DNA from: Dryococelus australis
Taxonomy: Eukaryota > Arthropoda > Insecta > Phasmatodea > Phasmatidae
Length of the DNA stretch: 64,000 bases
NCBI GenBank assembly: GCA_029891345.1
Contig: CM057002.1
Coordinates: 16,444,295-16,508,294, forward strand
Direction of reading: 5' to 3'
Both the position numbers and the translations under genes were made by a program. Shown here one piece after another: positions 26,001 through 29,000 of this stretch; position 1 is the first letter of the stretch; every line of letters starts with the position of its first letter. Below the pieces are notes generated by a model. The model did no database searches. It had not been told where the DNA came from and worked only from the letters and a program-made list of their open reading frames with translations.

Positions 26001-29000
26001 TTAAAAAGCAGCCAAACCATTGCATGTTTACCTCCATTTATCCAAGTATATTACGTTCGTGACTGCGGAATTTTCATCTCAACGAATATCCATATCGGTT
26101 ATTAACACATAAATGATGCAATTTTCATCCACACAACGTTTGGTTGTATTTCACTTCAAAATAGTGATACGTTGTTGAACATAAACAGTAAATAAACTTC
26201 CTTTTTTCATATGCCAAAGACCATATTTAATGAAAGGAAGTACAAAAATACGCAAGAGTGAAGTCAGAATGAAAGGGGGGAGGAACTGCAGATTCCAGAG
26301 AAAACCTGCTGACCATTTTTTATGCTTTAACCAGGTCTTCCTCTCCGACTTTAATTCAAAATGAAAATTTTTTTATTTGGACACCCCAATTTCACAGCCA
26401 AATTTTCATATGAGTATGCAACAAATAATCTCACATTTAGTAGGCCTATGTTATACCAGATTCACAGGTGTAAGTGCTATGAGACTGACATTTGTTTAGA
26501 ACCTGTATTCACACAAACTGGTTTATTTAATGAAGATGCGATTGATCAAATTCCTGGCCAACAGCTGCGATATAACCAAAATTCAAAATACACCACAAAT
26601 ATCATACACCTACAGCAGAACCTTAAAACAGAAACCTCTTTAATATGAAGCCTCATTAAAACAAAGTTGTATTCTCTCCCCTTCGAGTACAGTAAGGAAT
26701 TTAATGTTAATTTGTAGGCTTAAATAAAAATATTTGTTATTTCTGTAACAATGTAATGTCAAGTCCACTGGAAAAAGATGTCATAAGAATGTCCTATTTT
26801 CCAATATGCTGCCTCATGATGACAGTTGTATATTTTGAGATTTTTTATGATTACAAAAGCATGTTAATACAAATTGTTTCAAACTGCAAAAGTTCAGGTC
26901 ACTTGAGGTTTGTATTACAGAGGTTTCACCGTAACAGTTACAATAAACAGAAACAGGCACCATGTCACCCAACATTATCACTTACAAAACCACCACAAGG
27001 GAACTGAAAGTGTCAATTTGTCATTATGTACACCATACAAGACCCAATACTGAGTAATGTATTTAAATATAATATACACACAACCATAACCCATGCCAGC
27101 ACCAGTTATGACCAACAAGCCGAGCTCCAATGCAAGACGAATACAAAGATGCAATCCCAGTACACCGACCATGTCCCAGCCACCTGAAATAAAGAACCAA
27201 CCACGCTGGACAAACCTCTCGTGGCGTCTTGAAACCTAGACCAACATTGTGGTAACGCCGCAGAACTTTCTTCTTGAGGCCTGGCTTCCTGTTGAGGTTC
27301 AAGTGCGACTGCTTCTGGAATGCCTTCTCTGGCTAGAACGAGAAAGAAACATGTCAGCACACCCATACAAACAGTTCCACCTACCTCTCGTGGAGTCTTA
27401 AAACCCAAACCAATGTTGCGAGTGTACCGCAAAGACTTCCGTTTTTTGGCACCTAGGCCCTTCTTACGATTCAGAAAAATAGTAGGTTGCTTTTGAAAGG
27501 AGCGTTCATTCTGCAACACACACATACACTTGTTACAACCGTACTTTGGCAACACAACTTTATCAGATGTCTTTTTCAATTCCCATTACTGGTTTGTCCT
27601 ACAAGTCGCAAATTTGCTTAACAATAGATAATTAAATGAAGCCAACCACAAAATGGGAATATTAAAAATTTTCAGCGTGTCATATGCATGTATATTTACA
27701 AAAATAACAAAAATGTAATTTGTAATTTCTAGATTGAAACAATTACATAGCTTTTAATTTGACAATATGAAAACAATTCAAAACATTAAATTAACATGCA
27801 AATATAAAGTACCAGAAACTCCATTTATCTTCTTCCAACAATCCAGCTGAAATATTCTGTAATGGTACAAAATTCTACTGTTTAGGATTATGATGGTTAC
27901 TCCAATGTCAATATTTTGTTTTCATTCAGTGTTTGTTTGAAAGGCCCTCCAGAAAGACTACATAGTTTGAAGAAAACAAACGTTATTTATTTGATTTTCT
28001 TCTTACTCATATTTTCTATTACAGAAACATAACCTTACGTAGTTTATTTATCAACTAATTAATTATTTTAAATTGCTGTTACTATGTCTGTATGAGTAAC
28101 ACAAGTTTTACATTATCATATAAATTTTATTTAGGTACATACCATGTTCTATATGCAAGTATCTTATTCTTGTATAAACTCACTTGCAAGGTGTAAGTAA
28201 TAAGTATGCATTTATCTGTGATAAGAAGTTATAGGAAGTGACGCGTGAATGATAGCAAATGATAGAAGGAAAGGGAGGTTCCTTCTTTTAGTATGGCGGC
28301 ATTTCGAGCTAGATGGACTGGGAAGCGGCTGCGGCACAATGTTTTTATTCTCGGCTGCAACCTTCACCAACGTGTCAGCTGAGGTATCGAAGGGATGCTA
28401 CACGACTACGCCGAGGACTGCAATAACTTGATTGGAGTTTCCATGCGGGGATGATGATTATTTCCACTGCTAACGGGCCGTGTGACAACCATCTCGAGGC
28501 GTCGCTTGTTCTTCAAGTAAGGTCGTGATTAGTTTTATCGCTATCCCACGAAGGATCTTTCACGAGACTATTATTTTGTTTTGAAAGATCACAAACATTT
28601 TGTTGTGATATTTAATTGATCAATATGATGAAAGTCTGCAATATGAATTTTGAATCTGTATGAAGATTTAATTTTGACTACCTTCATGAACTTTCCAGAT
28701 GTCCCGAGTAAGAGTTGCTTTAATATCCACTGATCTAGTTGAGGAATAATAAAATAAGCAGACATTAAATAAACATATAATTATCTGAACGCTCAACTAT
28801 AAATTTGAGGAAGAAAAAAAATAACTCGCGTAGATTCCACTGCTGTTAATGTAATTAAGTTGTAACTTTTGAAACTATCAGTATAGTTTGTACAATATTC
28901 TACTGATTTTAATTATGTCTGGCACCAGATTGACTATCCTTAAAATATCTGTAGGCTTTTGAAATTAATGACATGCATGTATGAATGGCATGCCGTACTT

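What the first reader, a model, noticed from the sequence alone, without database searches (positions are those of the whole stretch)
27216..27510. Two homologous, probably mutually exclusive exon-2 cassettes in RpS11
Both cassettes are phase 0, end in the identical nine residues GLGFKTPRE, keep good splice sites and are open, but differ through the basic middle part (42 versus 39 codons). The cell could therefore make two uS17 proteins differing in the N-terminal region that contacts 18S rRNA, a route to ribosome heterogeneity.
Basis: partly seen in the sequence, partly recalled or inferred. Interest (0 to 1): 0.85.

Follow-up and report, generated by a model that had tools for sequence, protein, structure and literature searches.

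The report
Alternative exon pair in ribosomal RpS11
An insect's apparently only gene for the ribosomal protein uS17 (RpS11) carries two old, well-preserved versions of its second exon, packed so closely that the cell can probably use only one at a time, so it could build ribosomes of two kinds; no RNA data were available to prove it.

Summary
On the minus strand the RpS11/uS17 gene (no second copy found) has exon 1 (MADQ), cassette 2a (27510-27385, 42 codons), a 52-nt intron, cassette 2b (27332-27216, 39 codons), then exons 3 and 4. Both cassettes are open, phase 0, match Pfam Ribosomal_S17_N and end in GLGFKTPRE. They share 25 of 39 residues but only 10 of those 25 codons; synonymous sites are saturated, so the duplication is old and both stayed protein-coding. 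The intron's only consensus branch point lies 31 nt from the 2a donor, under the ~50-nt steric limit; 45 other introns estimated in this genome were 105 nt or longer. All four splice products stay in frame, so frameshift decay cannot enforce exclusion; geometry can. 2a resembles octopus and vertebrate uS17. 2b groups with the Drosophila protein (support 89/85), but the alternative is not rejected (AU p 0.074). A 2012 study lists fly CG8857 (RpS11) among genes with mutually exclusive exons, for a 183-nt exon I could not equate with these. Best reading: an old mutually exclusive exon pair giving two uS17 isoforms. Not shown: transcripts, proteins, any effect on ribosomes.

The parts
31716..31727 (-). 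RpS11 exon 1 coding part (MADQ), donor CAG|GTATGG, pyrimidine-rich leader upstream
   Evidence: one of 2 ATGGCNGAY sites on this strand, the only one that runs on as CARGTR; that fuller pattern, written after seeing the site, is expected 0.0006 times in 36 kb
27385..27510 (-). Cassette 2a, 126 nt, [42 protein letters not shown], phase 0 at both ends
   Evidence: best PDB relative octopus 9eho, 55.9 bits
27333..27384 (-). 52-nt intron between the cassettes; only yUnAy match CTGAC with A at +31, 21 nt before the end
27216..27332 (-). Cassette 2b, 117 nt, [39 protein letters not shown], phase 0 at both ends
   Evidence: best PDB relative Drosophila 4v6w, 41.9 bits
26900..26913 (-). Candidate arm that could pair with the 2b donor (27210-27223), 12 of 14 pairs, 296 nt apart; unproven
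   Evidence: 0 of 100 shuffles reach it at this site, 3 of 100 at any of the four splice sites; found by looking, no relatives to test it
18650..18855 (-). RpS11 exon 3 (AIEGTY...SPCFR), common to both isoforms; donor CAG|GTGAGT
4961..5084 (-). RpS11 exon 4 (DVEIGD...SFKKF stop); AATAAA just downstream
18533..18600 (-). C/D-box snoRNA sn3071 (RF01166) inside the intron after exon 3
   Evidence: 40.9 bits, cut-off 40

Best explanation
An old tandem duplication of RpS11 exon 2 made a pair of mutually exclusive exons. The spliceosome joins exon 1 to 2a or to 2b and the chosen one to exon 3. Joining 2a to 2b is blocked because the 52-nt intron puts its branch point about 31 nt from the 2a donor, too close for U1 and U2 snRNPs to bind together. 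Two uS17 isoforms of 155 and 152 residues result, differing only within the eukaryotic N-terminal domain (PF16205). 2a keeps the general animal sequence; 2b is the derived form, of the type in the fly reference protein. Shown: gene anatomy, homology, saturated synonymous divergence, intron geometry, no second copy found. Inferred: use of both exons, exclusivity, tissue regulation, two ribosome populations.
For: Two intact phase-0 cassettes in one gene; genome-wide protein searches list no second RpS11 copy or retrocopy. 25 of 39 residues identical but only 10 of those 25 codons; pS 0.89 (saturated) against dN 0.36. Both match PF16205. 52-nt intron, branch A at +31; PMC5740500 takes under 50 bp from donor to branch point as potential steric interference (passage). 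45 estimated introns of myosin and chaperonin genes in this genome: median 6264 nt, minimum 105; 2 of the 122 match rows carry 81-84 extra nt and may hide introns of about that size, none an excess near 52. All four products in frame. 2b groups with fly at 89/85. CG8857, which is RpS11, is listed among fly genes with mutually exclusive exons.
Against: No transcript or protein was seen. The fly exon listed in PMC3303723 is 183 nt long, not the roughly 120-126 nt expected of these cassettes, so homology of that case is not established. Insects can splice very short introns (recalled), so geometry may not be an absolute bar. The tree rests on 44 columns with long branches flagged by the tool, no starred fork, and holding 2a+2b or 2a+fly together is not rejected (p-AU 0.074 each). 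2b also scores higher with yeast (29.9-33.1 bits) than with octopus (28.1), so part of its likeness to fly may be length or retained old residues.
Confidence: 0.8

Rival explanations
1. One cassette is used almost always and the other is a rare or leaky alternative kept for a minor role such as autoregulation, with no two functional ribosome populations.
For: Splice sites are unequal: weaker 2a acceptor, weaker 2b donor. The one fly sequence in the PDB is of 2b type; it is shared by 4 entries, but 6XU6-8 were modelled on 4V6W, so this is one observation.
Against: Saturated synonymous change with conserved protein in both cassettes argues that both encode working proteins. Neither exon carries a stop or shifts the frame, unlike typical decay-coupled exons.
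Confidence: 0.15
2. 2b (or 2a) is a decaying relic of a recent exon duplication with no function.
For: 2b begins PEKA where 2a has NERS, and is three codons shorter.
Against: Synonymous sites are saturated, so the duplication is not recent; an open frame, splice sites and a PF16205 match of 38.0 bits have survived; 2b is 71% identical to fly over 38 columns and 25 of 39 to 2a.
Confidence: 0.03
3. Both cassettes are included together, giving a longer uS17 with a repeated N-terminal segment.
For: The double-inclusion product is in frame.
Against: 52-nt intron with branch point at +31; the 60 uS17-type chains shown of 120 matched are at most 199 residues and match as one stretch.
Confidence: 0.02

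Closest known systems
Mutually exclusive exons of Drosophila RpS11 (CG8857), as listed in PMC3303723
   Same: Same gene; CG8857 appears in Table 2 of a study of mutually exclusive exons from EST splicing graphs (abstract and passages).
   Different: The exon tabulated is 183 nt long; I could not see its sequence, its partner, or whether the pair is homologous to 2a/2b.
Steric-hindrance mutually exclusive exons (alpha-tropomyosin type, recalled; <50 bp donor-to-branch-point class in PMC5740500)
   Same: Adjacent homologous exons whose intervening donor and branch point lie too close (here; class described).
   Different: Here the gene encodes a core ribosomal protein, and both exons are multiples of three, so no frameshift-decay backup exists.
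Paralogue switching in fly ribosomes (RpS5a/b, RpS19a/b; PMC8887423)
   Same: Two versions of one ribosomal protein as a source of ribosome variety; RpS11 itself was enriched in fly head 80S (passages).
   Different: Two exons of one gene instead of two genes, so the switch would be made by splicing.
Myosin-head tandem exon array in the same genome (C3:215865514-215870422)
   Same: Tandem homologous exons in one gene: six copies covering profile positions 375/378 to 435-443.
   Different: Six copies with gaps of 628-842 nt against two copies 52 nt apart; that it is the insect Mhc exon 11 array is recalled.

Membership tests
Mutually exclusive tandem-duplicated exon pair | Adjacent homologous exons, same phase, similar length, intact frame | tested here: met
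   phase 0, 42 and 39 codons, 25 of 39 residues identical
Mutually exclusive tandem-duplicated exon pair | Each exon has usable acceptor and donor | tested here: met
   All four carry AG/GT; scores at the 86.7th-99.6th percentile with a PWM recalled from memory; use by the cell not seen
Mutually exclusive tandem-duplicated exon pair | Both copies held by selection | tested here: met
   pS 0.89 saturated, dN 0.36; one pair only, no relatives
Mutually exclusive tandem-duplicated exon pair | Transcripts carry one or the other, never both | not testable with these tools
   No RNA-seq or EST data held
Steric-hindrance exclusion | Donor-to-branch-point distance under about 50 nt | tested here: met
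   Predicted branch A at +31 of a 52-nt intron; limit from PMC5740500; branch point not mapped by experiment
RNA-structure (docking/selector) exclusion | Strong pairing around the cassettes | tested here: inconclusive
   Whole-region fold z-score +1.19, 91 of 100 shuffles fold as well; of 8 inverted repeats one pairs 12 of 14 bases with the 2b donor, 0 of 100 shuffles at that site, 3 of 100 at any of four sites; no relatives for covariation
uS17 / RPS11 protein family | Ribosomal_S17_N (PF16205) and Ribosomal_S17 (PF00366) domains | tested here: met
   2a isoform 114.7 and 96.8 bits; 2b isoform 103.3 and 96.9 bits
Homologue of a fly RpS11 exon pair | Fly RpS11 has exons orthologous to both 2a and 2b | tested here: inconclusive
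   2b type suggested by the fly PDB chain, not significant by AU test; fly 2a type not seen; CG8857 listed with mutually exclusive exons

The most novel reading that the evidence does not exclude
The pair dates from before the split of this lineage from flies and is kept across insects, making RpS11 a core ribosomal protein whose N-terminal segment is switched by splicing in a tissue-dependent way. The head-enriched RpS11 reported for fly 80S ribosomes, measured with unique peptides only, would then be one splice isoform rather than more of the same protein.
Probability: 0.28. Interest if true: 0.82.

Novelty: new member of a known kind. Interest (0 to 1): 0.58.

Why it matters
Ribosome heterogeneity is mostly argued from paralogues, modifications and substoichiometric proteins. 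A ribosomal protein gene with no second copy (RpS11 is scored as a Minute gene in flies, PMC2246290, passage) that makes two proteins by exon choice would allow a clean test: each isoform can be removed by editing one small exon without changing gene number, and each has its own tryptic peptides. If the pair is as old as the saturated synonymous sites suggest, selection has kept two kinds of insect 40S subunit for a very long time.

Tried and rejected
Retrocopies as fossils of past splicing: genome-wide searches with both isoforms listed the RpS11 exons and, with the 2a isoform, one further hit (C1, E 0.39, four stops inside); no retrocopy. Only the best candidates are scored in such searches.

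Relatives in public collections: an exon 3 alignment in genome contigs gave 2 loci of 20 pattern matches, both archaeal by title (L009, L010); in viral contigs 0 of 90 pattern matches was a relative. No insect comparison was possible that way.

Papers: GLGFKTPRE in 0 papers; RpS11 with 'mutually exclusive' and exon: 25 papers, all listed, none by title about this pair; ribosomal protein S11 with insect, alternative splicing, exon and isoform: 0; isoform names RpS11-RA to -PC: 1, a honeybee array paper naming RpS11-PC. Broader searches: 9 of 9 listed, 13 of 13, 40 of 2175, 30 of 90. CG8857 is in 5 papers; I saw the passage in each and only PMC3303723 ties it to mutually exclusive exons. No RpS11 mention in PMC2614494 or PMC8647923 (term finds). 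All 10 searches used. Hatje and Kollmar 2013 on the fly mutually exclusive exome, looked up by a recalled DOI, is not held; it may well list this gene.

RNA structure as the exclusion mechanism: no signal for the whole region; one candidate stem on the 2b donor remains open. A third cassette: none; the next tblastn match (22398-22330, E 9e-4) is a lysine-rich stretch.

Structure prediction of the isoforms was not attempted: by its description the tool takes window translations letter for letter, and I judged that a spliced product would not be one.

Full report
WHAT IS THERE. The window lies in a 3.415-Gb genome of 646 contigs. Telomere-type (TTAGG)6 matches number 184 forward and 615 reverse, overlapping ones counted; those listed lie near the start of contig 1, around 403.5 Mb of contig 1 and near the start of contig 2. 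Insect allergen repeats (PF06757) give 21 matches and none in 14 control prokaryotes. From these I take it to be an insect; the species was not determined. The gene is on the minus strand: exon 1 coding part 31727-31716 (MADQ), cassette 2a 27510-27385, cassette 2b 27332-27216, exon 3 18855-18650, exon 4 5084-4961 with stop. Introns are 4205, 52, 8360 and 13565 nt. Exon 1 rests on a pattern match with a donor in the right phase: one of two ATGGCNGAY sites on the strand, the fuller pattern being expected 0.0006 times in 36 kb but written after the site was seen.

THE TWO CASSETTES. Both translate openly, begin and end in phase 0 and end in GLGFKTPRE. They align over 39 codons with 25 identical residues; local score 114 against a maximum of 54 in 5000 shuffles. 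Each alone matches Ribosomal_S17_N above its cut-off (48.7 and 38.0 bits, cut-off 27). DNA identity is 67 of 117; among the 25 identical residues only 10 codons agree; by Nei-Gojobori pS is 0.89 (past saturation) and dN 0.36. That is the pattern of an old duplication in which both copies kept coding for protein. No second copy was found: the PF00366 search gives 2 matches, both exons in this window, and the full-isoform searches give the RpS11 exons here plus, for the 2a isoform, one hit at E 0.39 with four stops (only best candidates are scored).

EXCLUSIVITY. Both cassettes are multiples of three and all four exon combinations (2a, 2b, both, none) give open frames to the normal stop. So decay of double-inclusion messages cannot enforce exclusivity. 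The intron between the cassettes can: it is 52 nt, has one match to the branch-point consensus yUnAy (CTGAC, A at +31, 21 nt before the end) and a pyrimidine-rich 3' end. Human mutually exclusive exons with less than 50 bp from donor to branch point were classed as potential steric interference in PMC5740500 (passage). To judge how odd 52 nt is here, I estimated introns from consecutive profile matches in myosin and chaperonin genes: 45 introns from 122 rows, median 6264 nt, shortest 105 and 106, none under 60. Limits: edges are those of profile matches; for myosin 65 of 162 candidates were scored; and a short intron can hide inside one match. Of the 122 rows 2 are 81-84 nt longer than their profile span and may hide introns of about that size; the next excess is 27 nt. 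So 52 nt is shorter than any intron I saw, though introns near 80-100 nt exist. The same genome holds a six-copy tandem exon array in a myosin gene with gaps of 628-842 nt, so such arrays need not be tight. Splice sites are complementary: 2a has the stronger donor and weaker, UG-rich acceptor; 2b the reverse (PWM recalled).

RNA STRUCTURE. The region as a whole folds no better than shuffles (z +1.19, 91 of 100 shuffles at least as stable). Of 8 inverted repeats, one pairs 26900-26913 with 27210-27223, which spans the 2b donor: 12 of 14 pairs at 296 nt. In 100 shuffles of the surroundings none reached 12 for this site and 3 did for any of the four sites. The stretch searched was chosen freely, so this is a lead only: such a stem could mask the weak 2b donor and favour 2a.

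AGE. In PDB sequences 2a scores best with octopus uS17 (9eho, 55.9 bits; deposited by an octopus ribosome paper, passage), then 7oya (45.6) and further chains at 41-42; Drosophila 4v6w gets 38.5. 2b scores best with Drosophila 4v6w (41.9), then yeast-type chains (29.9-33.1), octopus 28.1, the mammalian 22tu chain 23.8. 4V6W is the D. melanogaster embryo ribosome, and 6XU6-8 were modelled on it, so the fly sequence counts once. A tree of 11 cassette sequences puts 2b with fly at 89/85 (ultrafast bootstrap/SH-aLRT), 2a outside that pair, with 44 columns, long branches flagged and no starred fork. Forcing 2a+2b together, or 2a+fly, costs 5.36 log-likelihood units and is not rejected (p-AU 0.074 each). 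So a duplication older than the split from flies is favoured but not shown. Saturated synonymous sites show great age in any case. Names of PDB species other than octopus and Drosophila are recalled.

WHAT IS KNOWN. PMC3303723 (abstract and passages) searched Drosophila EST splicing graphs for mutually exclusive exons; its Table 2 includes CG8857, which is RpS11 in Table 1 of PMC2246290 (passages). So the fly gene has been flagged in a table, without discussion in the passages I saw. The exon tabulated is 183 nt long, which does not match the cassettes here. I recall, from no call, that FlyBase has RpS11 isoforms with different N-termini. PMC8887423 (passages) reports RpS11 as one of few canonical ribosomal proteins differing between tissues, enriched in head 80S, measured with unique peptides against a UniProt set of 41,157 sequences; whether those peptides are isoform-specific is not stated in what I read. 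PMC4053861 (passage) reports fly RpS11 mRNA as highly enriched in Sm protein pull-downs, unlike two other ribosomal protein mRNAs. I found no paper describing an RpS11 exon pair or its effect on ribosomes in ten searches of an open-licence library, two of which list only part of their matches; Hatje and Kollmar 2013, the most likely place, is not held.

CONCLUSION. The step to ribosome heterogeneity is inference. rRNA contact of this segment follows from general knowledge of uS17 and was not tested. I class it as a new member of a known kind: a mutually exclusive exon pair, in an unusual place.

Noticed in passing
window 18533-18600, minus strand: C/D-box snoRNA sn3071 (RF01166, 40.9 bits, cut-off 40) lies 49 nt downstream of RpS11 exon 3 in the intron, with AUGAUGA and CUGA boxes.
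   Followed up: partly
window 26900-26913 and 27210-27223: Inverted repeat, 12 of 14 pairs, spanning the donor of cassette 2b; might mask that donor in the pre-mRNA.
   Followed up: partly
window 27106-27585, minus strand: The 2a frame stays open straight through the 52-nt intron and across 2b out of frame (159-codon stop-to-stop ORF), so a transcript retaining the mini-intron meets no stop there until 27106.
   Followed up: no
window 37090-37596, minus strand: Remnant of a retrotransposon: RNase H domain of reverse transcriptase (PF17917, 68.0 bits), about 5 kb upstream of RpS11 exon 1; the only one of 10 scanned ORFs (of 21 listed) with a Pfam match.
   Followed up: no
G000:C3:215865514-215870422, minus strand: Six tandem copies of one myosin-head exon (profile about 378-436) at gaps of 628-842 nt, as expected for the exon 11 array of insect muscle myosin (name recalled).
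   Followed up: partly
G000:C5:48911722-48913206, plus strand: An intron-free, near full-length Cpn60_TCP1 match (568 bits, profile 1-488 of 490, no stops) among otherwise intron-rich chaperonin genes; could be a retrocopy or DNA of bacterial origin.
   Followed up: no
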